Positions 4,882-46,634 of a DNA stretch of 64,000 bases are shown here, piece by piece. Below the pieces are notes generated by a model that saw only the letters and a program-made list of their open reading frames with translations, did not search any database and was not told the origin of the DNA. Position 1 is the stretch's first letter; each line of letters begins with the position of its first letter. Both the position numbers and the translations under genes were made by a program. Source of the DNA: Streptomyces populi (GTDB taxonomy: Bacteria; Actinomycetota; Actinomycetes; Streptomycetales; Streptomycetaceae); the NCBI RefSeq assembly GCF_002911015.1, contig NZ_KZ626843.1, forward strand, positions 62,001-126,000, given 5' to 3'.

Positions 4882-5036
4882 CTCGCGGGCGATGATGCAG
4901 CAGAGAACGCCCGCTTCGCGATCAACACGCCCGGAACGTACGGGAGTTCGCTGGATGATGTGACGGGAGCGCTCGAACGTGAACGGTTCCGCGCGTTCCC
5001 TGTGTCACGTATGCGATCTTGTGTCGCTCCGGCGGG

Positions 5037-5483
5037 TCATATTCCGTGCTTCTTCAGGATCGCCTCGATGTCGCTGAAGTCGTCCCCGGAGCCGTTCGCC
5101 CGTGGCGCGGCGGCCGGCCGGGTGGCCGGGCCGGAGCCCTGGCCCAGCGACGGGGCCGAGGCCGCGGGAGCCGCCGCCTCGCGCCGGCCGGCGGCCTTCG
5201 CGGCTCTGCGCTCCTTCCGCGTCCCGCCCTCGCGCCGCTCCACGGCGCGCGTGATCATGAACAGTGCCCAGGCTCCGCCGAGCACCACGAAGCCGGCCCA
5301 CGCGGTCGGGCTGAACGCGGTGTCGGCCAGCCAGCCGACCACTCCGGTCATGACCAGGCCGAGCGGCACCAGGGAGTAGGCGGCGATCCGGGCGGCCGCC
5401 AGGAAACGCTTGCGGTACGCCGTCACCGCGGCGATGCCCAGGCCGGCGACGGAGACGGCGGAGCAGACGGTCTCTGCGATCAT
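5037..5483 (-). CDS. Conserved membrane protein, function unknown
   Basis: A 148-aa protein with about three transmembrane helices in residues 1-80 (AVSVAGLGIAAVTAY, IAAYSLVPLGLVMTGVVGWL, AWAGFVVLGGAWALFMI), then a basic stretch (RREGGTRKERRAAKAAGRRE), a Pro/Ala-rich linker and a conserved-looking acidic tail FSDIEAILKKHGI. ATG 5483 follows GGAGGA at 5 nt, a clear start. No enzymatic motif; the short helical tail could be a protein-interaction motif. Confidence 0.75.
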   Translation of the reverse strand: MIAETVCSAVSVAGLGIAAVTAYRKRFLAAARIAAYSLVPLGLVMTGVVGWLADTAFSPTAWAGFVVLGGAWALFMITRAVERREGGTRKERRAAKAAGRREAAAPAASAPSLGQGSGPATRPAAAPRANGSGDDFSDIEAILKKHGI

Positions 5484-5655
5484 TCCGGTCCTCCAGGCGG
5501 GCTCGGCACGACATGGTTCCTCGTGCCTTCCATCCTGCACCGCCCCGTGCCCGGTATGCCACGGTCCGGGCAGACCTCAGGGACATCTCGGGGTCGCCGT
5601 CCTCCTCAGGTCCCGGTGGGACCGCCCCCCTCACCGGACTGGGAGACTGGATCCC

Positions 5656-6177
5656 ATGAACGACTCCTCCACCGCGCGCCCGGCTCCCGTCGTCCTGGAG
5701 GTCTGGTGCGATCTCCAGTGCCCCGACTGCCGTGACGCCCTCGCCGACCTCCGCGCGCTGCGCGCCCGCTACGGCGACCGTCTGGAGCCGCGCCTGCGGC
5801 ACTTCCCCCTGGAGAAGAACAAGCACGCCTTCGCCGCGGCGCAGGCCGCCGAGGAGGCCGCCGAGCAGGGGGCCGCCTGGCCGTACGTCGAGGCCGTACT
5901 CGGTCGCGTCGAGGAGCTGAACCGCGGCGGCGAAGACTTCCTGGTCTCGGTCGCGCGGGAACTCGGGCTGGACGCCGAGGAGTTCGACACGGCCCTGATC
6001 GACGGGCGGCACATCCTGATCGTCGACGCGGACCAGGCCGAGGGCAAGGCGATCGGCGTCACCGGTACCCCGACGTACGTCATCGGTGGTGAGCGCCTGG
6101 ACGGCGGCAAGAGCCAGGAGGGGCTGCGCGGGCGGATCGAGGAGATCGCCGACCGCCTGCTCGCCGAGCGGGCCTGA
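5656..6177 (+). CDS. DsbA-like thioredoxin-fold oxidoreductase
   Basis: A 173-aa thioredoxin-fold protein with CPDC at residues 22-25, a helical insertion, and the cis-proline loop GVTGTPTYVIGG. No signal peptide is visible, so it probably acts in the cytosol, like FrnE- or glutaredoxin-related disulfide oxidoreductases. ATG follows GGGAG at 8-9 nt. Convergent with the GNAT gene. Partner unknown. Confidence 0.88.
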   Translation: MNDSSTARPAPVVLEVWCDLQCPDCRDALADLRALRARYGDRLEPRLRHFPLEKNKHAFAAAQAAEEAAEQGAAWPYVEAVLGRVEELNRGGEDFLVSVARELGLDAEEFDTALIDGRHILIVDADQAEGKAIGVTGTPTYVIGGERLDGGKSQEGLRGRIEEIADRLLAERA

Positions 6178-6233
6178 CACCCGCCGGTTCCGTGACGGGC
6201 CCGGGCTCCGGTCCGGGCCCGGAGCCGTCACGG

Positions 6234-7061
6234 CTAGAGCAGCGTCTTGTACAGGTGGTACTCCGTCGTCCCGTAGCCGAGCGTCTCGTAGAGCCGCTCG
6301 GCCGGGGTGTTCCCCGCGAAGACGTTGAGGGCGATGGCGGTCAGTCCGGCGGCCGCCGCCCGGGCCTCGGCGAGCCGCATGAGCGTCCGGCCGTGTCCGT
6401 GTCCGCGCCGGTCGGCACGGACACGGACGTCGTAGACGAAGGCGCGTCCGCCCCGGCGCCCCAGCCAGAGATCGCCCACGGGGACGCCCTCGTGCTCCAG
6501 GACGCTCAGCCACATGTTCGCGGTGGCCGGACCCTGCGGCAGCGCCCCGCCGAAGTCGCGGTCCGCCTTGGCGAGCGCCTCGGCCTCCGGTACCCCGCGC
6601 CGGATCCAGTCCTCCGCGTAGTCCCGCCTGCCCGCCCGGTCCCAGGTCTCGTACTCGTCCTGGGTCATGGGACGGTCGGCGCTGCCCGGCGGGAGGACGA
6701 GCACGGAATCGTCGAGCGGCTTCTCCATGATGCGGTTGCGCAGCACGTAACCGAGCGCCCTGACGAGCCCCAGGGCCGCCGTGGCCTCGCCGGGAACGGT
6801 CACCTCGATCCGCCGGCAGCCCCAGCCGCGGGCCACCTCCTCCGCGGCCAGCGCGGCCACGGTGCCCCGGCCGCGGCCCCGGTCCGGCTCGTCGATGCCG
6901 AGCTCGTGGATCCTGGCGACGGGCGGGCCCGATCCGGGTTCCGTGGCGAGGTGTACCCGGCCGACGGGACGGCTGTTCACGCACACCTGGTAGCGGCGTG
7001 AGAGCGCCCCGTCGGCGGCGTGGTGAAGCGGCTCGGTCGGCCGCAGGGTCGTGGTCATCAC
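6234..7061 (-). CDS. Double-domain GNAT acetyltransferase
   Basis: 275 aa with two GNAT folds. The N-terminal one carries IDEPDRGRGRGTVAALAAEE and the C-terminal one VRADRRGHGHGRTLMRLAEA, both matching the acetyl-CoA pyrophosphate-binding R/QxxGxG/A loop. The C-terminal motif LNVFAGNTPAERLYETLGY is the usual family ending. Tandem GNATs include mycothiol synthase and aminoglycoside acetyltransferases, but nothing here assigns a substrate. Start is GTG 7061 or ATG 7058. Confidence 0.85.
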   Translation of the reverse strand: MMTTTLRPTEPLHHAADGALSRRYQVCVNSRPVGRVHLATEPGSGPPVARIHELGIDEPDRGRGRGTVAALAAEEVARGWGCRRIEVTVPGEATAALGLVRALGYVLRNRIMEKPLDDSVLVLPPGSADRPMTQDEYETWDRAGRRDYAEDWIRRGVPEAEALAKADRDFGGALPQGPATANMWLSVLEHEGVPVGDLWLGRRGGRAFVYDVRVRADRRGHGHGRTLMRLAEARAAAAGLTAIALNVFAGNTPAERLYETLGYGTTEYHLYKTLL

Positions 7062-7137
7062 GGGTGTTGTACCCGCCGGCGCTCACGTCGTCAGCCGAAT
7101 TTCCCGGTGATCACGGGCAGGTGGCCTCCGGGGCCGC

Positions 7138-7959
7138 TCAGGGGTCGAGGTCGTCCCCGGCCCGCTCCTCGAAGAGGCGCATCGCCTTGGCGGTCACCGG
7201 GCCCGGCGCGCCCGGCAGTTCACGGGCGTCGATCCGGTGCACGGCCTGGACGTCGCGCAGCGTGGAGGTCAGGAAGACCTCGTCGGCGTGCTCCAGGACG
7301 TCCAGCGGCAGGTCGGTCTCCCTGGCGCCGGTCCATTCGACCGTGAGGGCACGGGTGATGCCGGCGAGGCAGCCGGAGGCGACCGGCGGGGTGTGTATCT
7401 CGCCGTCGAGGACGACGAAGACGTTCGACCCGGTGCCCTCGCAGAGTCGGCCCACCGTGTTGGCGAACAGCGCCTCGGACGCGCCGTGTTCACGCGCGCG
7501 GGCCAGGGCGACGACGTTCTCGGCGTACGAGGTGGTCTTCAGGCCGGCCAGGGCGCCGCGCTCGTTGCGGGTCCAGGGGACGGTGACGACGGCCGTGGAG
7601 TCGGGGCGCGGGGCCGAGCCGCCGAGCGCGACGACGAGGGTCGGGCCGTGCTCCCCGCGGTCGGAGCCGAGCGGCCCGTGACCGCCGGTGTAGGTGATGC
7701 GGAGCCGGCCGAGCGGCATCGGGTTGGCGTCGAGGACGGCGGCGCAGGCGCGGCGCACCTCGTCGGCGTCGGGCTCGGGCAGGCCCAGGCCGCGTGCCGA
7801 ACGGGCCAGCCGGTCGAGGTGGCGGGTCAGTGCGAAGGGCCGGCCGTCGACCGCCTTCACGGTCTCGAAGATGCCGTCGCCCACGGTCAGCCCGTGGTCG
7901 AAGACGGAGACACGGGCGGCCTCGATGTCCTGCAGCCCGCCGTCGAGCCAAAGCTTCAC
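7138..7959 (-). CDS. pabC: Aminodeoxychorismate lyase-like class IV aminotransferase
   Basis: 273 aa. Class IV PLP fold with FDHGLTVGDGIFET at the N-terminus, the PLP lysine in LAGLKTTSYAENVVALARA, and EGTGSNVFVVLDGEIHTP near the cofactor phosphate site. Together with the pabB-like gene just upstream (86 bp apart, same strand) it most likely converts aminodeoxychorismate to p-aminobenzoate for folate. Branched-chain or D-amino acid aminotransferase is the alternative within the family. GTG 7959 follows GAGGTAGGA. Confidence 0.85.
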   Translation of the reverse strand: MKLWLDGGLQDIEAARVSVFDHGLTVGDGIFETVKAVDGRPFALTRHLDRLARSARGLGLPEPDADEVRRACAAVLDANPMPLGRLRITYTGGHGPLGSDRGEHGPTLVVALGGSAPRPDSTAVVTVPWTRNERGALAGLKTTSYAENVVALARAREHGASEALFANTVGRLCEGTGSNVFVVLDGEIHTPPVASGCLAGITRALTVEWTGARETDLPLDVLEHADEVFLTSTLRDVQAVHRIDARELPGAPGPVTAKAMRLFEERAGDDLDP

Positions 7960-36416: not shown

Positions 36417-36607
36417 GGTTCGTCAATCGCGGCTCGCCCCACACACCCGGCGAAGGAATCTTCACGGAGGGTTGAACGCCCGTAATCGTTTCCGCGTATC
36501 TCCCGCTGAACGCAGGCGCCGCGTTCGCGCACGACAGGCACACGGACCATGACCGACCAGTCGAACACCGGTCGGCCGTCCGCCCCCGACCCGAGTGAGG
36601 ATTCCGC

Positions 36608-37450
36608 ATGTCCAGGGCTCTTCCGAAGTACAACAAGCGGCGCGTCGTGATGATCGGCGGAGCCTCCGCCGTGGTGCTGTCCGCGGCGGTGATCGCCGGC
36701 AGCGCGCTGGCGGGCGAGACGCACAACGACAACGCCCAGAACGCCACGACGAAGGCCGCCGCGAGCACCATCACCTGCCCGGACGTCGCCTCGAAGCTGC
36801 CCGCGGTCCCCGCCTCCGCCAAGGCCGAGGTCGACAGGAACCTCGCCCTGCTGAACACCCAGATCGCCGAGGCCAACAAGCGACTCGTCGACACCGTCGG
36901 ACAGGGCGGCCCCAACTTCGTCCAGAACGCGATCCTCGGCCCCCTCAAGGACAAGCGCGTCTCCACCATCGACCGCATCGCGATCTCCATCGGCCGCACC
37001 GCCGCCAAGCCCACCGGACTGGACACCCTCGCGGCCTGCACCCTGAACACCGCGGGAGGCGCGGCAGCCGACGGCACGGCCACCGCGTCCGCCGCCCCGA
37101 GCGCGACGGCCGGCGCTCAGGCGGGCGGGGCCGCCGGAAGCGGCGCAGCCGCCACCGCGGGCACCATCACCTGCCCGGACGTCGCCTCGAAGCTGCCCGC
37201 GGTCCCCGCCTCCGCCAAGGCCGAGGTCGACAGGAACCTCGCCCTGCTGAACACCCAGATCGCCGAAGCCAACAAGCGACTCGTCGACACCGTCGGACAG
37301 GGCGGCCCCAACTTCGTCCAGAACGCGATCCTCGGCCCCCTCAAGGACAAGCGCGTCTCCACCATCGACCGCATCGCGATCTCCATCGGCCGCACCGCCG
37401 CCAAGCCCACCGGACTGGACACCCTCGCGGCCTGCACCCTGAGCAAGTGA
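36608..37450 (+). CDS. Secreted protein with two near-identical domains
   Basis: 280 aa. Signal segment [20 protein letters not shown] then A-rich linker, and two copies of a 94-residue helical domain ([20 protein letters not shown] ... [17 protein letters not shown]) separated by a 38-residue Ala/Gly/Thr linker. Each domain has one Cys near each end, likely a disulfide. The DNA copies differ at a single synonymous base. ATG follows GTGAGGATTCCGC. Not recognised; divergent from argG, with a clear hairpin after it. Confidence 0.8.
36765..37442. repeat. 282-bp direct repeat inside the secreted-protein gene
   Basis: Copies at 36765-37046 and 37161-37442, offset 396 bp, differ only at the GAG/GAA codon (36876/37269). 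The 114-bp spacer is unrelated. Confidence 0.9.
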
Positions 37451-39118: not shown

Positions 39119-40648
39119 TCAGACCGCCGGAAGTCTGACCGTGAACGTCGTCGCCCCCGGGCTGCTCTCCAGGCCGACCGTGCCGTCGTGCGCCTCGACC
39201 ACGGCCGCCACGATCGACAGGCCGAGCCCCGCCCCGCTGCCGGAGGCGTCGGCACGGCGCCGGTCCGCCCGGGTGAAGCGCTCGAAGACACCCGGCCGGA
39301 CGTCCTCGGGAACCCCGGGACCGTCGTCGTGGACCTTCAGCACGGCGTCCTTCCCGTCACGCTCCAGGGACACCGTCACCCGGGTGCCCGGGGGCGTGTG
39401 GACGCGGGCGTTGGCCAGCAGGTTCGCCGACACCTGCTGGAGCCGGTGGAGGTCGCCCGTCACCGTCACCGGCTCCTCCGCAAGCTCCAGCACCCAGCGA
39501 TGGCCGGGGCCCGCCGCGCGGGCGTCGGTCACCGCGTCGAGGACGAGACGGGTCAGGTCGACGGGCAGGCGCTCCAGGGGACGCCCCGCGTCCAGACGGG
39601 CCAGCAGCAGCAGGTCGTCGACCATCTCCCCCATGCGCGCCGACTCGGCGGCGATCCGCTCGAGGGCCCGCGTCACCTTCGGGGGCACCGGCCCGGGGTG
39701 CAGCAGCGCGAGCTCGGCGTGGCCCCGGACCGAGGCGACCGGGGTGCGCAGCTCGTGGCTGGCGTCGGCGGCGAAGGTGCGCAGCCGTTCCTCACTCGCG
39801 TGCCGCTTGGTGAGCGCGTCCTCGACATGGCCGAGCATGCGGTTGAAGGCGCCGGCGACACGGCCCACCTCGCTGCGCGGGTCCGCCCCGGGCGCCCGTG
39901 GAGGCAGTGCCACCTCGCCGCTGGCGAGCGGGAGTTCGCTGACCCGGGTGGCGGTCGCGGCGACCCGGTTCAGCGGCCGGAGCGACCAGCGCACCCACAG
40001 GGCCCCGGTGACCCCGGCGGCCACGAGCGTCACGCCGAAGACCAGGGAGGCGACGAGTTCCAGACGGTGGACGGCCGCGTCGACCGGCTCCGTGGGCAGC
40101 CCGGTGATCAGGACGTCGCCGTCCTTGCCGGGCGTCGCCAGGACGCGGTAGTCGCCGAGACCCGAGATGCACACGGTGTGGGCCCGGCCGTCCGCCGGGA
40201 CCGCTGCCAGGGCCGCCTCGTCGTGGGCGGTCGGATCCACGTTCCGGACGGCCGTGCCGGAGCCCGGCGGCACGACGGCGGCGTTGGTGACGTCCCCGCC
40301 GACCAGGCGCGCCCCGAACGTGCCGGTGCTCTGGCGCCGGATGTCGCCGCGCTCGTCGCCGTCGTGGTCGGACGGCTTGCCGGGCGACGTCGCCGAACCG
40401 TGCTCCAGGCTCGCCGGGAACCGCGCCCCGGCCTCCTGGAGCTGCTGGTCGAGGCGGCCGGTCAGGAAGCCGTCCAGTTCGTAGACCGCGGCCAGGCCGA
40501 CGGCCGCGCAGCTGAGCGCCAGCAGCACGAGCAGTCCGGCGGTGAGGCGAGCGCGCATCGTGCGGGGCCGGGGCAGCGCCCGCAGCGCCGAGGCCGCCCG
40601 GGCCCGCCGGGGCCCCTTCCCGTTCCCGTCCCGCATGTCCGGCCTCAC
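39119..40648 (-). CDS. Sensor histidine kinase of the flavin-redox locus
   Basis: 509 aa. Two membrane helices (LTAGLLVLLALSCAAVGLAA; LVASLVFGVTLVAAGVTGAL) enclose an outside sensor of about 150 residues; HAMP, then H-box FAADASHELRTPVASVRGH, N-box LQQVSANLLANARVHTPPG, and G-boxes HDDGPGVPEDV, GSGAGLGLSIV. GTG 40648 overlaps the response-regulator stop (GTGA); ATG 40636 is also possible. Phosphorylates the adjacent OmpR-type regulator. Its signal is unknown; context suggests redox state or an electron acceptor. Confidence 0.93.
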   Translation of the reverse strand: MRPDMRDGNGKGPRRARAASALRALPRPRTMRARLTAGLLVLLALSCAAVGLAAVYELDGFLTGRLDQQLQEAGARFPASLEHGSATSPGKPSDHDGDERGDIRRQSTGTFGARLVGGDVTNAAVVPPGSGTAVRNVDPTAHDEAALAAVPADGRAHTVCISGLGDYRVLATPGKDGDVLITGLPTEPVDAAVHRLELVASLVFGVTLVAAGVTGALWVRWSLRPLNRVAATATRVSELPLASGEVALPPRAPGADPRSEVGRVAGAFNRMLGHVEDALTKRHASEERLRTFAADASHELRTPVASVRGHAELALLHPGPVPPKVTRALERIAAESARMGEMVDDLLLLARLDAGRPLERLPVDLTRLVLDAVTDARAAGPGHRWVLELAEEPVTVTGDLHRLQQVSANLLANARVHTPPGTRVTVSLERDGKDAVLKVHDDGPGVPEDVRPGVFERFTRADRRRADASGSGAGLGLSIVAAVVEAHDGTVGLESSPGATTFTVRLPAV

Positions 40649-41493
40649 CGGCCCGCCGCGGGCTTGAGGACGTACCCGGCGCCCCGGACCGTGTGGATCA
40701 TCGGCTCCCGGCCGGCGTCGACCTTCTTGCGCAGATAGGAGATGTAGAGCTCGACGACATGGGCCTGGCCGCCGAAGTCGTACGACCAGACGCGGTCGAG
40801 GATCTGTGCCTTGCTGAGCACCCGGCGCGGGTTGCGCATGAGGAAGCGCAGCAGCTCGAACTCGGTCGGCGACAGCTCGATCAGGTCCCCGCCCCGGGTC
40901 ACCTCCCGGGCCTCCTCGTCCATCGCCAGGTCTCCGACGACCAGCCGGGGGCCCTCGTCGATCCGGCGGGCCATGCCGGCGCGGCGGAGCAGTCCGCGCA
41001 GCCGGGCGACGACCTCCTCCAGGCTGAAGGGCTTGGTGACGTAGTCGTCGCCGCCCGCCGTGATGCCGGCGATGCGGTCCTCCACCGCGTCCCGGGCGGT
41101 GAGGAAGAGGACGCAGACACCCGGCAGCACGGTGTGCAGATCGCGCAGCACGGCGAAGCCGTCGGTGTCCGGGAGCATCACGTCGAGGACGACGGCGTCG
41201 GGCAGCAGCTCGCGCGCCCCGGCTGCGGCCGAGGCGCCGTCGTGCGCGGTACGGACCTCCCAGCCCTCGTACCGCAGCACGCCGGAGAGGACCTCGGCCA
41301 GGTCCGGATCGTCGTCGACGACGAGGACGCGCACGGGGGTGCCGTCGGGCCGCGTGAGCGCGGGCGGCCGCCCGGCCCCACGGGACCGGCCGGCACCGGC
41401 GCTCGTGGGCCGGGAAGTACCGGGATCCGCAGCTCGGGAAGCACCCGGATCCGCGACTCGGGAAGCACTGGGGTCTGGGGAGGGAGTGTTCAT
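40645..41493 (-). CDS. OmpR-family response regulator of the flavin-redox locus
   Basis: 282 aa. An Ala/Ser/Pro-rich head with repeats (SRVADPG, SRAADPG, SRPT; 24-bp DNA repeats at about 41410-41480), then a receiver: VLVVDDDPDLAEVL, phosphorylated Asp in AVVLDVMLPD, Lys in GGDDYVTKPFSLEE. Winged helix: IELSPTEFELLRFLMRNPRR, YISYLRKKVD, HTVRGAGYVLKP. ATG 41493 with GGAAGG. Likely binds the 11-bp repeats immediately upstream. Confidence 0.93.
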   Translation of the reverse strand: MNTPSPDPSASRVADPGASRAADPGTSRPTSAGAGRSRGAGRPPALTRPDGTPVRVLVVDDDPDLAEVLSGVLRYEGWEVRTAHDGASAAAGARELLPDAVVLDVMLPDTDGFAVLRDLHTVLPGVCVLFLTARDAVEDRIAGITAGGDDYVTKPFSLEEVVARLRGLLRRAGMARRIDEGPRLVVGDLAMDEEAREVTRGGDLIELSPTEFELLRFLMRNPRRVLSKAQILDRVWSYDFGGQAHVVELYISYLRKKVDAGREPMIHTVRGAGYVLKPAAGR

Positions 41494-41541
41494 GTCGCCT
41501 TCCAGCATCGCGCCTCCCGGCGGTCCCTCCCCTCCGTGCGG

Positions 41542-41648
41542 CCTCTGAGTTTCCTCTGAGTCGCCTCTGCGTCGCCTCTGCGCGAGAACCCGCTCTCAGT
41601 TCGCTGTGAGTCCGCCCGGAACGGGCTCGTTCAGAGCCGCCTCAGAGG
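41542..41648. promoter_or_regulatory. 11-bp direct-repeat operator of the two-component system
   Basis: Four adjoining 11-bp units start at 41542, 41553, 41564 and 41575: CCTCTGAGTTT, CCTCTGAGTCG, CCTCTGCGTCG, CCTCTGCGCGA. Inverted TCAGAG cores (complement of CTCTGA) recur at 41631 and 41642, again 11 bp apart; CTCTCAG/CTGTGAG lie between, at 41593 and 41604. OmpR-type dimers recognise tandem sites at this spacing. The region separates the regulator from the reductase genes. Confidence 0.75.
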
Positions 41649-41697
41649 TTCACCGAGCACAGTTTCCACCCGGACCGCAAGAAAGCAGGACGCACAG

Positions 41698-43056
41698 ATG
41701 ACCACGGTGTACGAGCGGGCTGCCCCGCGCACGACACGAGGACGCGGGCGGCCCCGGCCCTCGCCCGCCGGACCGCTGCTCGCCCTGCTGTGGGCGGGAG
41801 CGGCCGGAGTCCTCGCCCTGTGGTGGGCCGACACCCGGTCGGTGGTGGGCCTGGCGGGCTGGCTGACGGACGCCGGACGGATCGCCGGACTGCTGTGCGG
41901 CTACGCCTGCGCCGTCCTGGTGGCGCTGATGGCCCGGGTCCCGCTCCTGGAGCGGCGCGTCGGCTCCGACCGGGTGGCCCGCTGGCACGCCATGGCCGGC
42001 CGCTACACGATCTGTCTGCTCGTCGCGCACGTCACGCTGATCCTCTTCGGCTACGCGGCCCAGGACGGGACGGACGTCGTCCACGAGACGATCGGCGTGG
42101 TGTTCGACTACCCGGAGATGCTCAAGGCGACGACCGGCACGGTCATCCTGTTCGCCGTCGGGATCACCTCGGCGCGCCGGGCCCGCCGCCGGATCAGCCA
42201 CGAGTTCTGGTACTACGTGCACCTGCTGACGTACGCGGCGGTCTTCCTGGCCTTCTTCCACCAGCTCGCGCTCGGCTCCGACTTCGTCGGCGACGCGGCG
42301 GCCCGGGCCGCCTGGTACGCCCTGTACCTCGGTACGGCCGCGCTCGTCGTGTGGTTCCGGCTGCTCGCCCCGGTGCGGCTCAACCGGCGCCACCGGCTGC
42401 GCGTGGAGTCCGTGCACCGGGAGGCACCCGGGGTCTTCTCCGTCGTGATCCGCGGGGAGCGGCTGGACGAACTGGACGCGCGGGCCGGCCAGTTCTTCCG
42501 CTGGCGGTTCCTCGCGGACGGAATGCGGTGGACCTCGACGCCGTACTCGCTGTCGGCGCCGCCCCGGCCGGACCGGATGCGGATCACGGTGAAGGCGCTC
42601 GGCGACCACAGCGCGGCCGTCGGGACGCTGCGTCCCGGCACCCGGGTGTGGGCGGAGGGCCCCTACGGCTCGCTGACGGCGGACCGGAGCAGTACGGCGA
42701 AGGCCCTGCTGATCGCGGGCGGCGTCGGCATCACGCCGCTGCGCGCCCTGTTCGAGACCCTGCCCGGCCGGGTCACGCTCCTCTACCGGGCGCGCACGGC
42801 CGAGGACCTGGCACTGGGCGGCGAGTTGGAGGACATCGCGCGGTGGCGCGGGGCCCGCGTCCTGTACGCGCTCAACGCCGCCGACGGCACCCGCCCGCGG
42901 TTCACCGCCGAGTCGCTGCGCGAGGCCGTGCCGGACGTCGCCGAGCACGACGTCTATCTCTGCGGTCCCCCCGCGATGGCCCGGGACCTGTACGGGGCGC
43001 TGCGCGCAGCGGGCGTCCCCGACCGCCGTATCCACCACGAGTCGTTCGAGCTGTGA
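41698..43056 (+). CDS. Ferric-reductase-like membrane flavocytochrome 1
   Basis: 452 aa. N-terminal ferric-reductase transmembrane domain of about six helices with paired haem histidines in RWHAMAGRYTICLLVAHV and YYVHLLTYAAVFLAFFHQL. C-terminal FAD/NAD(P)H module: RWRFLADGMRWTSTPYSLSA (FAD), LIAGGVGITPLRALFE (nucleotide), VYLCGPPAMARDLY. Moves electrons from cytosolic NAD(P)H across the membrane. ATG with CAGGA upstream. First of a five-gene unit with its FMN partner next. Confidence 0.92.
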   Translation: MTTVYERAAPRTTRGRGRPRPSPAGPLLALLWAGAAGVLALWWADTRSVVGLAGWLTDAGRIAGLLCGYACAVLVALMARVPLLERRVGSDRVARWHAMAGRYTICLLVAHVTLILFGYAAQDGTDVVHETIGVVFDYPEMLKATTGTVILFAVGITSARRARRRISHEFWYYVHLLTYAAVFLAFFHQLALGSDFVGDAAARAAWYALYLGTAALVVWFRLLAPVRLNRRHRLRVESVHREAPGVFSVVIRGERLDELDARAGQFFRWRFLADGMRWTSTPYSLSAPPRPDRMRITVKALGDHSAAVGTLRPGTRVWAEGPYGSLTADRSSTAKALLIAGGVGITPLRALFETLPGRVTLLYRARTAEDLALGGELEDIARWRGARVLYALNAADGTRPRFTAESLREAVPDVAEHDVYLCGPPAMARDLYGALRAAGVPDRRIHHESFEL

Positions 43057-43063
43057 GGCCGCC

Positions 43064-43576
43064 GTGCACGCCCTGAAGAAGAACCGTCCGCTGCGCCGGG
43101 TGACGCTGGCGGCCGCCGCCACGGTCACCGGTTTCGTCCTGCTGCTCTCGCTGAAGCCGCACACGCCGCCGGCACCGGCCGAGGCCTCGTCGTCCGTGGG
43201 CCGTTCCTCCACCGCGGCCCCGGGCGACTCGTCCGGGAACACCCCGGAAAGCGACTCCGGCGGTTCCGCGGGCACGTCCGGGGGCTCGAAGAGCACGGGG
43301 AGCAAGACCGTCACCGGCGATACGGTGCAGACCCGTTGGGGTCCGGTCCAGGTGCGGATCACGCTGAAGGACGGCCGGATCACCGAGTCCGCCGCGGTCG
43401 TCTATCCTTCGGACAATCCCAGGGACCAGGAGATCAACAGTTACGCGATTCCCCAGCTCAGGCGCGAGACACTGGCCGCGCAGAGTGCTCGGATCGACTC
43501 GGTGTCCGGAGCCACCTATACCAGCGACGGATACAGGCAGTCACTCCAGTCCGCACTCGACTCGGCAGGCCTCTGA
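43064..43576 (+). CDS. Exported FMN-binding domain protein 1
   Basis: 170 aa. Signal-anchor (LRRVTLAAAATVTGFVLLLSL, no lipobox), Ser/Gly/Thr-rich linker, and an FMN-binding domain (residues 80-170: WGPVQVRITLKDGRITESAA ... IDSVSGATYTSDGYRQSL). The Thr in SGAT is the expected site of covalent FMN attachment by ApbE. GTG 43064, eight bases after the reductase stop. Proposed acceptor for electrons from reductase 1. Confidence 0.9.
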   Translation: MHALKKNRPLRRVTLAAAATVTGFVLLLSLKPHTPPAPAEASSSVGRSSTAAPGDSSGNTPESDSGGSAGTSGGSKSTGSKTVTGDTVQTRWGPVQVRITLKDGRITESAAVVYPSDNPRDQEINSYAIPQLRRETLAAQSARIDSVSGATYTSDGYRQSLQSALDSAGL

Positions 43577-43659
43577 ACGCACGGGCGTCGTGGACCGTAT
43601 CTCTGGGCCAGGGGGCCACTCCCCTCACCCCGTCTCTCCAGGACGAACACGGAGGAACC

Positions 43660-45039
43660 GTGTCCACGATCGCCGGTGGTCGCGCCGCGCGGCGCCAGAC
43701 CATGCGCCGAATCCGCCCTCGCCGCTCGCCCGCCGTCCCGCTGTTGATCGCCGTCTGGGCCGGCGCCGCCGCCGTCCTCTGGCTGTGGTGGAACAACACC
43801 CCGTCCATCGCGGACAACAACAGCAGGATCCTCAACGCCGGGCGCATCACCGGGCTGCTCGCCGGTTATCTGATGGCCCTCGTGGTGCTGCAGATGGCCC
43901 GGGTCCCCGCCCTCGAACGCAGGGTGGGATCGGACCGGGTGGCGCGCTGGCACGCGATGACCGGCCGCTACACCATCTGCATGGTCATCGCCCACCTCTT
44001 CCTGACGATGTGGGGCTACGCCCTGCAGTCCGGCAAGGGGCTCGGCGGGATCGTGCAGCAGACCGTCGACTCGGTCAACCAGCTGCCCGACATGGGCAAA
44101 GCGGCGATCGGCACGGGCCTGCTCGTGCTGATCGGGTTCATCTCCGTCGGCTGGCTGCGCCGGCTGATCCCGTACGACACCTGGTACCACGTCCACCTGC
44201 TGACGTACGCCGCGGTGTTCCTGACGTTCTGGCACCAGCTGTCCACCGGCAACGACTTCGCGGTGGAGCCCGTCGCCAAGACCGTCTGGTACGGGCTCTA
44301 CGGCTCGGTGACCGCCCTGGTCATCTGGTACCGAATCCTTTCTCCGATCCGGCTGAACCTGAAGCACCGGATGCGGGTCCAGGCGGTCATCGAGGAGACG
44401 CCCGGCATCGTGTCGGTGCTGATCAGCGGACGCAAGCTGCACCGGATGGGCGCGGAGGCGGGGCAGTTCTTCCGCTGGCGCTTCCTGGCGCCCGGGATGC
44501 GCTTCAGCTCCCACCCGTACTCGCTCTCGGCGTCGCCCCGCCCCAACATGCTGCGCATCACCGTGAAGGCGATCGGCGACCACAGCGCCGGCCTGCGTGA
44601 TCTGGAGCCGGGCACCCGGGTCTGGGCCGAGGGCCCCTACGGCGCCCTGACCGCCGACAAGCGCAGCCGCGGCAAGGTGCTCCTGGTGGCGGGCGGCGTC
44701 GGCATCACCCCGATGCGGACGCTGTTCGAGACCCTTCCCGGCGCGTCGGGCGACCTCACGCTGCTCTACCGGGCCAACACCACGCAGGACCTGGCCCTGT
44801 GGGACGAACTGGCCGCCATCTCCAAGGAGCGCGGGGCGCGGCTGATGTACGCGGTGAACAGCCCCGACGGCGAGCGTCCGGACATCTCGGCGGACTCCCT
44901 GCGCCGCAAGCTGCCCGACATAGACGACCACGACGTCTTCATGTGCGGGCCGCCCGGCTTCGCCCAGGAGGTGTACGCGGCACTGCGCGGCGCGGGCGTC
45001 CCCGCTCGCCGCATCCATCACGAGTCGTTCGAGATGTGA
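43660..45039 (+). CDS. Ferric-reductase-like membrane flavocytochrome 2
   Basis: 459 aa, a close paralogue of the gene at 41698: RWHAMTGRYTICMVIAHLF, WYHVHLLTYAAVFLTFWHQL, RWRFLAPGMRFSSHPYSLSA, LVAGGVGITPMRTLFETLPG, FMCGPPGFAQEVY, and the same RRIHHESFE ending. GTG 43660 has GGAGG 4 nt upstream. Duplicated with its FMN partner, so the locus has two parallel reductase-flavoprotein modules. Confidence 0.92.
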   Translation: MSTIAGGRAARRQTMRRIRPRRSPAVPLLIAVWAGAAAVLWLWWNNTPSIADNNSRILNAGRITGLLAGYLMALVVLQMARVPALERRVGSDRVARWHAMTGRYTICMVIAHLFLTMWGYALQSGKGLGGIVQQTVDSVNQLPDMGKAAIGTGLLVLIGFISVGWLRRLIPYDTWYHVHLLTYAAVFLTFWHQLSTGNDFAVEPVAKTVWYGLYGSVTALVIWYRILSPIRLNLKHRMRVQAVIEETPGIVSVLISGRKLHRMGAEAGQFFRWRFLAPGMRFSSHPYSLSASPRPNMLRITVKAIGDHSAGLRDLEPGTRVWAEGPYGALTADKRSRGKVLLVAGGVGITPMRTLFETLPGASGDLTLLYRANTTQDLALWDELAAISKERGARLMYAVNSPDGERPDISADSLRRKLPDIDDHDVFMCGPPGFAQEVYAALRGAGVPARRIHHESFEM

Positions 45040-45058
45040 GCGACGGGAGTCAGGAACG

Positions 45059-45850
45059 ATGAAGAAGAATCACCCCATCCGCCGGTTCGTGCTGGCGAGC
45101 GCCGCCACCGTGTCCGGAATAGTGCTGCTGCTGGCGCTCAAGCCCGCGTCCGACCCGGCCGCCGCCTCGGCGCAGGCCGGTGCCGTGCCCCAGCAGACGG
45201 CGGCCGCCCAGGGGGCTCAGGGCGGCGCCGCCGAGCAGGCGGGCGCCGGCACCGTCCTCGGTGACGTGGTGCGGACCGAGTACGGCCCGGTCCAGGTGCG
45301 GCTCACCATGAGCGGCGGCAAGATCACCAAGGCCGAGGCGGTCCAGGCGCCCGCGGGCGGGACCAGCTCCCAGAAGACCGAACTCTCGGTGCCCAAGCTC
45401 AACCAGGAGGCCGTCGCGGCGGGCAGCGCCGACATCGACAGCGTCTCCGGCGCCACCTACACCAGCGAGGGCTACAAGAAGTCCCTCCAGTCGGCCCTGG
45501 ACAAGGTGAAGACCTCCGGCGGCACGTCGGACTCCTCGAGTTCCCCGGGCAAGGCCTCCGCGACACCGGCCGCACAGGCACGCGTCGTCACCGGGACCGT
45601 GGCGAACACCCAGTACGGCCCCGTCCAGGTCCGGCTCACGCTCGCCGGCAAGAAGATCACCAAGGCCGAGGCGGTCCAGGCGCCCTCGGGCGGGACCAGC
45701 TCGCAGAAGACCGAACTCTCGGTGCCCAAGCTCAACCAGGAGACCGTCGCGGCGGGCAGCGCCGACATCGACAGCGTCTCCGGCGCCACCTACACCAGCG
45801 AGGGCTACAAGAAGTCCCTCCAGTCCGCCCTGGACAAGGCCGGTGTCTGA
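45059..45850 (+). CDS. Exported protein with two FMN-binding domains
   Basis: 263 aa. Signal-anchor IRRFVLASAATVSGIVLLLA, Ala/Gln linker, then two FMN-binding domains (about 70-150 and 182-262), each with YGPVQVRLT and DIDSVSGATYTSEGYKKSLQ. Two SGAT threonines imply two covalent FMNs. Domain arrangement recalls PplA of the Listeria extracellular electron transfer system (also two flavinylated domains), though that is a lipoprotein and this has no lipobox. Stop overlaps the apbE start. Confidence 0.9.
   Translation: MKKNHPIRRFVLASAATVSGIVLLLALKPASDPAAASAQAGAVPQQTAAAQGAQGGAAEQAGAGTVLGDVVRTEYGPVQVRLTMSGGKITKAEAVQAPAGGTSSQKTELSVPKLNQEAVAAGSADIDSVSGATYTSEGYKKSLQSALDKVKTSGGTSDSSSSPGKASATPAAQARVVTGTVANTQYGPVQVRLTLAGKKITKAEAVQAPSGGTSSQKTELSVPKLNQETVAAGSADIDSVSGATYTSEGYKKSLQSALDKAGV
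45281..45840. repeat. Direct repeat of FMN-binding domain DNA
   Basis: Blocks of about 227 bp starting at 45281 and 45614 (offset 333 bp). The 3' two thirds are almost identical; differences concentrate in the first 60 bp. Indicates a recent internal duplication. Confidence 0.85.
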
Positions 45851-46634
45851 GCCCGTCGAGGACGCACCCCAGGAGCTGCGCCACGCCGAGGAGGTGATGG
45901 GCACGGTCTTCTCCTTCGACGTGCGCGGCGGCGAACCCGGGGCCGTGCGCACGGCGTTGGAGGAGGCGGTCACCCGACTCCACCGCGTGGACGAGGTGTT
46001 CAGCACCTACCGTGAGGACAGCCAGATCTCGCGGCTCGTCCGCGGGGAGATCACCGTCGAGGAGTGCGACCCGGAGGTCGCCGAGGTCCTCGAGCTGGGC
46101 GCCGAGGCGGAACGGGTCAGCGACGGCTGGTTCAGCACGCGTTACGAGGGGCGGCTCGACCCCACGGGGATCGTCAAGGGCTGGGCGGCGGAACACGCGG
46201 CCCAGCGTCTCGCCGCGGCCGGGGCGAGCGGAGTGAGCGTCAACGGCGGCGGCGACGTCCAGCTGCTCGGCGTCCCCGGGCCGCACCGCCCCTGGCGGGT
46301 GGGCGTGTCCGACCCGCTCCGTCCGGGCACGCTCGCCGCGGTGATCTCCGCGGCCGGTGCCGACGAGCTGGCCGTCGCGACCTCGGGCACCGCCGAACGC
46401 GGTGCCCACATCGTCGACCCGCGCACCGGGAGGTCCGCGGTCACCGACCTGGTGGCCGTGACCGTGGTGGGCCCCCGGCTGACCTGGGTGGACGCCTGGG
46501 CGACCGCGGCCTTCGCGATGGGCTCACGGGCGGGCCTGGACTGGCTGGAGTCGCTTCCGGACGTGGAGGCGCTGCTCATCACGGCGGGCGACGAGGTCAG
46601 ATGCACGGGAGGCCTCGCCCGGCGCCTGGGCTGA
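45843..46634 (+). CDS. apbE: FAD:protein FMN transferase ApbE
   Basis: 263 aa. EEVMGTVFSFDVRGG, DPTGIVKGWAAEHAAQRLAA, GVSVNGGGDVQLLG, ELAVATSGTAERGAHIVDPR and VDAWATAAFAMG are ApbE motifs for FAD and Mg binding. Transfers FMN from FAD to Thr in SGAT sites, presumably on the two FMN-domain proteins just upstream. GTG 45843 overlaps the preceding stop by 8 nt. No signal peptide is evident, so modification may be cytosolic before export, or the start is further upstream. Confidence 0.92.
   Translation: MSEPVEDAPQELRHAEEVMGTVFSFDVRGGEPGAVRTALEEAVTRLHRVDEVFSTYREDSQISRLVRGEITVEECDPEVAEVLELGAEAERVSDGWFSTRYEGRLDPTGIVKGWAAEHAAQRLAAAGASGVSVNGGGDVQLLGVPGPHRPWRVGVSDPLRPGTLAAVISAAGADELAVATSGTAERGAHIVDPRTGRSAVTDLVAVTVVGPRLTWVDAWATAAFAMGSRAGLDWLESLPDVEALLITAGDEVRCTGGLARRLG

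What the first reader, a model, noticed from the sequence alone, without database searches (positions are those of the whole stretch)
39119..46634. Two-component-controlled transmembrane flavin electron-transfer locus
Two ferric-reductase-like flavocytochromes, each followed by an exported FMN-binding protein with SGAT flavinylation motifs, end in apbE and stand divergent from an OmpR-type two-component system. Seen: gene order, overlaps, haem histidine pairs, FAD/NAD(P)H motifs, three SGAT sites. Known: ApbE links FMN to Thr of such sites; Listeria PplA and other EET systems use ApbE-flavinylated surface proteins. Inference: the five genes carry NAD(P)H electrons across the membrane to surface flavins, for iron, quinone, thiol or antibiotic acceptors. 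The double reductase/flavoprotein layout under its own sensor is unusual, and I know of no assigned function.
Basis: partly seen in the sequence, partly recalled or inferred. Interest (0 to 1): 0.85.

Follow-up and report, generated by a model that had tools for sequence, protein, structure and literature searches.

The report
Flavin electron relay loaded before export
Many Streptomyces soil bacteria carry this gene set for two membrane proteins predicted to pass electrons from inside the cell to flavin-bearing surface proteins; the gene for the flavin-attaching enzyme encodes no recognisable export signal, so the flavin is likely fixed on inside the cell before export, and the core genes share a conserved promoter pattern with a sugar-polymer-cutting enzyme that they might feed.

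Summary
In detail: a two-component pair (HK, RR) stands divergent from FR1-FMN1-FR2-FMN2-apbE, with three SGAT sites. The class is known: MsrQ-like flavinylation clusters (eLife 2021). A close homologue of FMN2 (SaFMN3) carries covalent FMN. Added here: (1) ApbE has no signal peptide. A start-independent hydropathy test finds one in 0 of 186 ApbE rows of class Actinomycetes and in 25 of 30 from other classes; FMN proteins of the same loci pass in 161 of 167. FMN1 and FMN2 have RR just before the hydrophobic core in 120 of 120 Streptomyces cases. Flavin loading in the cytosol with Tat export is the likely route here; outside the genus KR is as common as RR, so Tat is not a general rule. (2) The locus is two transcription units. 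FR1-FMN1 travel with HK-RR (41 loci with all, 32 with none) and carry RR boxes. FR2-FMN2-apbE have an ECF-type promoter, GAAC-N17-CGTA, in 80 of 80. (3) The same promoter precedes a secreted protein (56 of 57) and one membrane-anchored LPMO group (17 of 17, own gene included; paralogues 0 of 12). A role in LPMO electron supply is possible but untested.

The parts
39119..40648 (-). sensor histidine kinase (HK); extracellular region with SLEH and an acidic DHDGDE..DTR-like stretch
   Evidence: Pfam; 44 HK aligned
40645..41508 (-). OmpR-type response regulator (RR)
   Evidence: Pfam; 82-83% identical RR beside FR-FMN-apbE in family f84
41543..41560 (+). predicted RR box CTCTGAG-N4-CTCTGAG (0 mismatches), RR-proximal
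   Evidence: at most 2 mismatches in 37 of 43 Streptomyces intergenic regions
41630..41647 (-). predicted RR box, opposite orientation, FR1-proximal (1 mismatch)
   Evidence: 41 of 43 regions
41698..43056 (+). FR1, ferric-reductase-like membrane flavocytochrome with NAD(P)H-binding part
   Evidence: Pfam; PDB matches; alignment
43064..43576 (+). FMN1, exported-looking FMN_bind protein, one SGAT site, RR before hydrophobic core
   Evidence: Pfam
43574..43602 (+). predicted ECF-type promoter TGAAC...CGTATCT of FR2; overlaps the FMN1 stop codon
   Evidence: GAAC-N17-CGTA in 80 of 80 loci
43660..45039 (+). FR2, paralogue of FR1 (59% identical)
   Evidence: Pfam; alignment; tree
45059..45850 (+). 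FMN2, exported-looking FMN_bind protein with two domains and two SGAT sites, RR before hydrophobic core
   Evidence: Pfam; PDB 8p2a match 3e-36
45843..46634 (+). apbE, short flavin transferase without recognisable signal peptide
36473..36501 (+). the other exact copy of the FR2-type promoter pattern in the genome
   Evidence: GAAC-N17-CGTA in 56 of 57 loci
36608..37450 (+). secreted-looking protein with a duplicated domain, predicted to be in the same ECF regulon

Best explanation
This is a Streptomyces MsrQ-like flavinylation locus whose two ferric-reductase-like membrane proteins are predicted to carry NAD(P)H electrons out to exported FMN proteins, which are likely flavinylated in the cytosol by a signal-less ApbE and then exported folded, probably by Tat. 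Shown by sequence: gene order, domains, SGAT sites, no signal-like segment on ApbE, RR before the hydrophobic core of FMN1 and FMN2, conserved boxes at RR/FR1, conserved promoter-like pattern at FR2. Inferred: NAD(P)H and FAD feed each FR on the inside; two haems carry electrons across; FMN1 (one flavin) and FMN2 (two flavins) stay tethered outside by the N-terminal segment and pass electrons on. The constant core is FR2-FMN2-ApbE under an ECF sigma factor; FR1-FMN1 is an inducible duplicate under its own two-component system and relies on the core's ApbE. The final acceptor is not settled; surface metal (copper or iron, including a copper LPMO with the same promoter pattern) is my first choice, O2 second.
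Against: Tat is not shown. Outside the genus the pair before the core is RR in 14, KR in 14 and RxR or none in 7 FMN frames (4 more without a core in the slice looked at), although their ApbE lack a signal too; other Streptomyces clusters have RR in 14 and KR in 5. So RR is a feature of this locus, not of the class, and the export route elsewhere is open. TatC is in 237 of 246 class genomes and does not discriminate. PMC10339131 read the SaFMN3 N-terminus as secretion signal plus membrane anchor and took the transferase to be extracellular. My signal test is a hydropathy rule, not SignalP, and class and control loci were mostly the best-scoring ones. An ApbE exported in complex with FMN2 is not excluded. 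Electron transfer, haem content and flavinylation were not measured for these proteins.
Confidence: 0.55

Rival explanations
1. Assimilatory metal reductase: the surface flavins reduce Fe(III), Cu(II) or other metals for uptake, as proposed for MsrQ-like clusters with VIT1.
For: Published VIT1 association in 153 clusters. Of 30 flanking genes scanned in 14 hand-picked loci, 7 in 4 loci are of metal-transport families: ZnuA and two ABC-3 permeases after apbE in L171, ArsP_1-YHS in L204, CorA in L167, NicO and CorA in L177. The HK sensor has an acidic stretch, DHDGDE in 33 of 44 and a looser form in 43 of 44 Streptomyces HK, which could bind a cation.
Against: The genes beside this locus that I scanned are no metal transporters: argR, an argD-type aminotransferase, L,D-transpeptidase, PNPOx. 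No background rate for the neighbour scan. The acidic stretch is not kept in the HK of f84 and f99.
Confidence: 0.3
2. NOX-like oxidase: the relay reduces O2 outside the cell to H2O2 or superoxide, for signalling, defence or as co-substrate for peroxygenases.
For: Reduced SaFMN3 is re-oxidised by O2 at 1.2 s-1; best PDB matches of FR1 are 8qt6 and kin, E 7.7e-13 (that these are SpNOX is recalled).
Against: The rate is modest and reduced flavins react with O2 in general (recalled), so this is no proof of purpose.
Confidence: 0.2
3. Usual extracytosolic flavinylation: ApbE leaves the cell by riding on FMN2 or by an unknown route, and FMN is attached outside.
For: The review and SaFMN3 passages that I saw describe exported ApbE for exported substrates; FMN proteins without RR in other families are hard to explain by Tat.
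Against: 0 of 186 class ApbE rows have a signal-like segment; FAD would have to be exported too, which in Listeria needs dedicated transporter subunits.
Confidence: 0.22
4. Respiratory extracellular electron transfer of the Listeria kind, disposing of excess NADH to distant acceptors.
For: NAD(P)H-linked membrane protein and flavin-site surface protein.
Against: No exported ApbE; Streptomyces are aerobes (recalled); one to three sites per FMN protein in most orthologues give short reach.
Confidence: 0.1

Closest known systems
MsrQ-like flavinylation gene clusters (Meheust et al. 2021, PMC8238504)
   Same: PF01794 membrane protein, mostly with PF00175 C-terminal part, beside FMN_bind and apbE; broad in Actinobacteria
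   Different: two FR-FMN pairs, own two-component system for one pair, ECF-type promoter for the other, no signal on ApbE; that paper kept clusters with a signal or lipid site on at least one of the target genes
SaFMN3 of Streptomyces azureus (PMC10339131, PDB 8p2a)
   Same: same FMN domain family, 67 of 86 residues identical to the first FMN2 domain; multi-flavin; gene flanked by a transferase gene
   Different: three domains against two here; among 77 FMN2 orthologue frames 53 have two sites, 14 three, 9 one, 1 none; FR partners are not named in the parts of the paper that I saw
Listeria EET (FmnB, PplA, EetB; PMC9973259)
   Same: ApbE-like enzyme and surface protein with covalent FMN
   Different: FmnB acts outside and needs FAD export; here ApbE has no signal, and an FR protein is the predicted electron source
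Cytosolic ApbE of Klebsiella pneumoniae
   Same: ApbE without signal peptide
   Different: its target there is a soluble fumarate reductase, not an exported protein
SpNOX-type bacterial NADPH oxidase (PDB 8qt6 and others)
   Same: haem membrane part plus FAD/NAD part in one chain, E 7.7e-13 over residues 150-438
   Different: no flavinylated partner proteins in that system (recalled)

Membership tests
MsrQ-like flavinylation cluster | PF01794 protein within five genes of apbE or an FMN_bind gene | tested here: met
   definition
MsrQ-like flavinylation cluster | a signal peptide or lipid site on at least one of ApbE/FMN_bind | tested here: met
   FMN1 and FMN2 have a hydrophobic N-terminal segment behind a start codon; hydropathy rule, not SignalP
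MsrQ-like flavinylation cluster | transmembrane electron transfer to the flavin | not testable with these tools
   needs purified or in-vivo assay
ApbE flavin transferase family | ApbE fold and conserved residues | tested here: met
ApbE flavin transferase family | exported, membrane-bound location usual in bacteria | tested here: not met
   0 of 186 rows in the class, 25 of 30 in other classes; cytosolic members are known, so this does not exclude membership
Tat substrate (FMN1, FMN2) | twin arginine before a moderately hydrophobic core | tested here: met
   120 of 120 Streptomyces FMN proteins of this locus with a core; not general outside the genus
Tat substrate (FMN1, FMN2) | export lost without TatC or with RR changed to KK | not testable with these tools
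   needs a laboratory strain
Listeria-type EET | extracytosolic ApbE (FmnB) with FAD export | tested here: not met
   no signal on ApbE; FAD exporter not searched for
CutRS-type two-component system | two conserved extracellular cysteines and TAWATAAA sites | tested here: not met
   the one extracellular Cys is kept in 8 of 44 HK; box here is CTCTGAG-N4-CTCTGAG; definition
sigma-E type ECF regulon | ECF promoter with 16-17 bp spacer, dependence on sigE | tested here: inconclusive
   spacer 17 in 80 of 80 fits, but the letters of the published consensus are in a figure that I could not see, and dependence cannot be tested

The most novel reading that the evidence does not exclude
The FR2-FMN2-ApbE core is the built-in electron (or H2O2) supply of a membrane-anchored copper LPMO on the Streptomyces surface: both are switched on by one ECF sigma factor, the flavins are loaded in the cytosol and sent out through Tat, and electrons run NAD(P)H, FAD, two haems, surface FMN, LPMO copper. 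That would supply a missing physiological reductant of a bacterial LPMO.
Probability: 0.15. Interest if true: 0.9.

Novelty: new variant of a known kind. Interest (0 to 1): 0.65.

Why it matters
Flavinylation of exported proteins is described in the papers seen as happening outside the cell, which demands FAD export. A class of bacteria whose sampled ApbE have no signal, paired with exported-looking FMN proteins, says that the order of events is probably reversed there, and this is testable with one fractionation, one tatC mutant and one mass spectrum. The split control (ECF-type promoter for the core, two-component boxes for the duplicate) and the promoter shared with an LPMO group give a concrete lead on when the relay is used and on what it might feed; PMC8981238 (abstract) says that no bacterial LPMO electron donors had been identified before its own candidate.

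Tried and rejected
Considered and dropped: control of all five genes by the two-component system (boxes in the 300 bases upstream of FR2: 0 of 80 at 2 mismatches, 1 of 80 at 3). RR regulon beyond this locus: own-genome matches at 2 mismatches are near the control count (17+17, several of them from this locus, against 13+10); of two further 1-mismatch sites, one (L238) precedes a trypsin-like, HtrA-like protease and the other (L237) lies at transporter genes; not pursued. CutRS identity: rejected. TatC co-occurrence as a test: uninformative. HK acidic stretch as a general metal sensor: not kept in f84/f99. The first FMN N-terminus script was wrong because the profile had grown into the signal region; replaced. 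The position table was drawn with a pattern that itself demands RR, so RR there proves nothing. The first promoter search in the genome used a spacer one base too long and is superseded. Of the five 1-mismatch promoter sites, L271 precedes an unknown gene and L272 lies between a regulator and a monooxygenase gene, so no exported protein there. A Pfam scan of the wrong strand of L238 was repeated on the right one. Enlarging the LPMO table failed and then met the cap. Papers: the lists of ten searches (titles and abstract starts only) showed none on a cytosolic ApbE serving exported substrates in Actinobacteria; subscription papers and supplements were not searched.
Full report
What is there. 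The seven genes are present and open at the stated places: HK and RR on the minus strand (overlapping by 4 nt), then FR1, FMN1, FR2, FMN2, apbE on the plus strand with gaps of 7, 83 and 19 nt and an 8-nt overlap between FMN2 and apbE. FR1 and FR2 are 59% identical and both keep two His pairs. FMN1 has one FMN_bind stretch, FMN2 two; all three carry SGAT. argR (Pfam) follows on the other strand. The nearest named relative in the scan is Streptomyces aureus (FR2 98% identical).

It is a known class. Meheust et al. (PMC8238504; abstract, two sections and passages seen) describe 1797 'MsrQ-like' clusters, broadly conserved in Actinobacteria, 1437 of them with a C-terminal NAD-binding part. The first FMN2 domain matches PDB 8p2a, a domain of SaFMN3, at E 3e-36 with 67 of 86 residues identical (that 8p2a is the SaFMN3 domain is my reading of PMC10339131 and the sequence). 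SaFMN3 carries covalent FMN when co-expressed with ApbE, has a potential of -184 mV and is re-oxidised by O2.

Layout across Streptomyces. A scan of named genomes with FR2 gave 583 relatives, of which the best 80 were kept, all Streptomyces. FR2-FMN2-apbE with argR is the constant core where contigs reach far enough. Of 73 loci with more than 6 kb upstream, 41 have FR1, RR and HK, 32 have none, and none is mixed; 7 with less upstream were set aside. Presence changes at least 14 times on a quick FR2 tree, 77 loci scored. In a quick tree of 92 of 183 FR sequences FR1 and FR2 are sister groups (99*), so the pair arose by duplication in the Streptomyces line. In family f84 (L155, L157, L158) and f99 (L182) a close two-component system (RR 71-83% identical) stands divergent from a single FR-FMN-apbE, probably the older arrangement. 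This genome has a second such cluster with its own two-component system (L013; RR 53%, HK 40%).

Two transcription units. The RR/FR1 gap holds CTCTGAG-N4-CTCTGAG in both orientations: at most 2 mismatches in 37 of 43 (plus) and 41 of 43 (minus) Streptomyces loci, against 0.1 and 0.05 of 43 in base shuffles. Matches also lie in that gap in L155, L158 and L182, but not in L157. Upstream of FR2 the box is absent (0 of 80 at 2 mismatches). Instead GAAC-N17-CGTA, an ECF-type promoter (that label is recalled), is present in 80 of 80 loci with or without the FR1 module, always with spacer 17 although 16 to 18 were allowed (shuffles 2 of 1600). In the window its -35 part overlaps the FMN1 stop codon at 43574. 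The pattern occurs in 0 of 43 RR/FR1 gaps and in 62 of 4240 windows of 310 bases on the opposite strand, 1.5%. Outside the genus it is not seen: of 59 FR upstream regions in the second sample 11 have it, all from Streptomyces genomes.

ApbE has no recognisable signal. For every ApbE frame I asked whether any start codon up to 75 residues upstream of the domain is followed by a hydrophobic, acid-free 15-residue stretch before the domain (hits with under 150 aligned residues dropped). Named Streptomyces loci 0 of 76, second-sample loci 0 of 110 (60 short-type, 50 long-type; 15 from Streptomyces, 32 family codes, 3 duplicates of sequences already counted). Controls from other classes of the phylum sample, the best-scoring 30 loci: 25 of 30, one frame dropped. 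A like rule on FMN proteins in the same loci passes 120 of 124 and 41 of 43, so the result is not a failure of the rule in high-GC genomes. Stop-to-stop frames of 255-265 aa occur. The model (61 sequences, pLDDT 95) matches T. pallidum Ftp from residue 7 onward, so the fold begins where the protein begins. The genome has just two ApbE places.

Therefore flavin is likely attached inside. FMN1 and FMN2 show RR within five residues of the hydrophobic core in 120 of 120 Streptomyces cases with a core (4 of 124 frames had none, cut or shifted frames among them; a wider count gives the same 120 with 7 without core and 2 without motif). This is what a Tat signal or Tat signal anchor would look like, and Tat carries folded, cofactor-loaded proteins (PMC9973259 passage). 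Against a general rule: FMN frames of other families have RR 14, KR 14, RxR or none 7 (six of them RxR in f85, one cut), no core 4; other Streptomyces clusters RR 14, KR 5; RK or KK none. Their ApbE lack a signal as well, so outside this locus the export route is open.

Who shares the promoter. In this genome TGAACNC-N15-CGTATCT has two exact matches, both in this window: at FR2 and 107 bases before a secreted-looking protein with a duplicated domain (36608-37450); five more have one mismatch; the reversed control gives none. The 36608 promoter is kept in 56 of 57 loci, whereas the neighbouring L,D-transpeptidase and PNPOx genes have the pattern in 0 of 61 and 2 of 71. One 1-mismatch site precedes an LPMO_10 protein (E 6.6e-52) with a signal-like start, a Ser/Thr/Ala-rich linker and a C-terminal membrane tail (sequence; the start codon is my choice). 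In 17 of 17 genes at 58% identity or more with upstream sequence (the own gene and 16 others; one more was cut) GAAC-N17-CGTA lies 65-159 bases before the start; in 12 paralogues under 50% it is found in none. Of 61 Streptomyces genomes, 14 have both this LPMO (50% identity or more) and a close ApbE (75% or more), 4 only ApbE, 4 only the LPMO, 39 neither (from the lists; Fisher p 3e-7, phylogeny not controlled). Other 1-mismatch sites precede a secreted serine protease and a membrane peptidoglycan-binding protein (start of the latter assumed), one an unknown gene and one no exported gene. The regulon thus looks like one of exported envelope proteins, and the LPMO keeps the promoter in the four genomes without a close ApbE (L278, L288, L290, L291). 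The LPMO link is a lead, not a finding.

Function. The mechanism I commit to: NAD(P)H to FAD to two haems in FR, then to surface FMN, with cytosolic flavinylation and probable Tat export. Acceptor: surface copper or iron first, O2 second. Metal-transport genes sit beside such clusters in 4 of 14 hand-picked loci (no background rate), and PMC8238504 reports VIT1 in 153 clusters.

Papers, what was seen: PMC8238504 abstract, two sections, passages; PMC11334425 abstract and passages; PMC12052999, PMC9973259, PMC5928378, PMC10924467, PMC12802291, PMC9205884 passages; PMC10339131 first of six parts and passages; PMC5449189 searched, no match; PMC6767563 one section and passages; PMC8981238 abstract and passages.

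Noticed in passing
window 36608-37450: Secreted-looking protein made of two nearly identical ~80-residue domains joined by an Ala/Gly-rich linker; no Pfam family above cut-off; shares the ECF-type promoter of FR2 in 56 of 57 loci.
   Followed up: partly
L013 (own genome, C78:28000-39757), 4948-7448: Second FR-FMN-apbE cluster divergent from another two-component system; its apbE lies in two frames in this assembly, while in L166, L169, L173 and L185 it lies in one frame.
   Followed up: partly
L171:1527-4916: A ZnuA-like binding protein and two ABC-3 permeases follow apbE closely on the same strand, the tightest metal-uptake link among the scanned neighbours.
   Followed up: partly
HK 39119-40648, extracellular part: Acidic stretch DHDGDE..DTR after SLEH (strict form 33 of 44, looser form 43 of 44 Streptomyces HK) that is not kept in f84/f99; possible cation site.
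   Followed up: partly
L238:1501-1518: One-mismatch copy of the RR box just before a trypsin-like (HtrA-like) protease gene elsewhere in the genome.
   Followed up: partly
L183, L184, L191, L193, L198, L211 (family f85): FMN proteins with RAR/RGR instead of RR although ApbE has no signal: export route unexplained.
   Followed up: no
L178, L187, L190, L192, L196, L201, L205, L206, L212 (family f92, 1.3-2.2 Mb genomes): Streamlined genomes keep FR-FMN-apbE with MKR at the FMN start and ApbE frames of only 253-278 aa from stop to stop.
   Followed up: no
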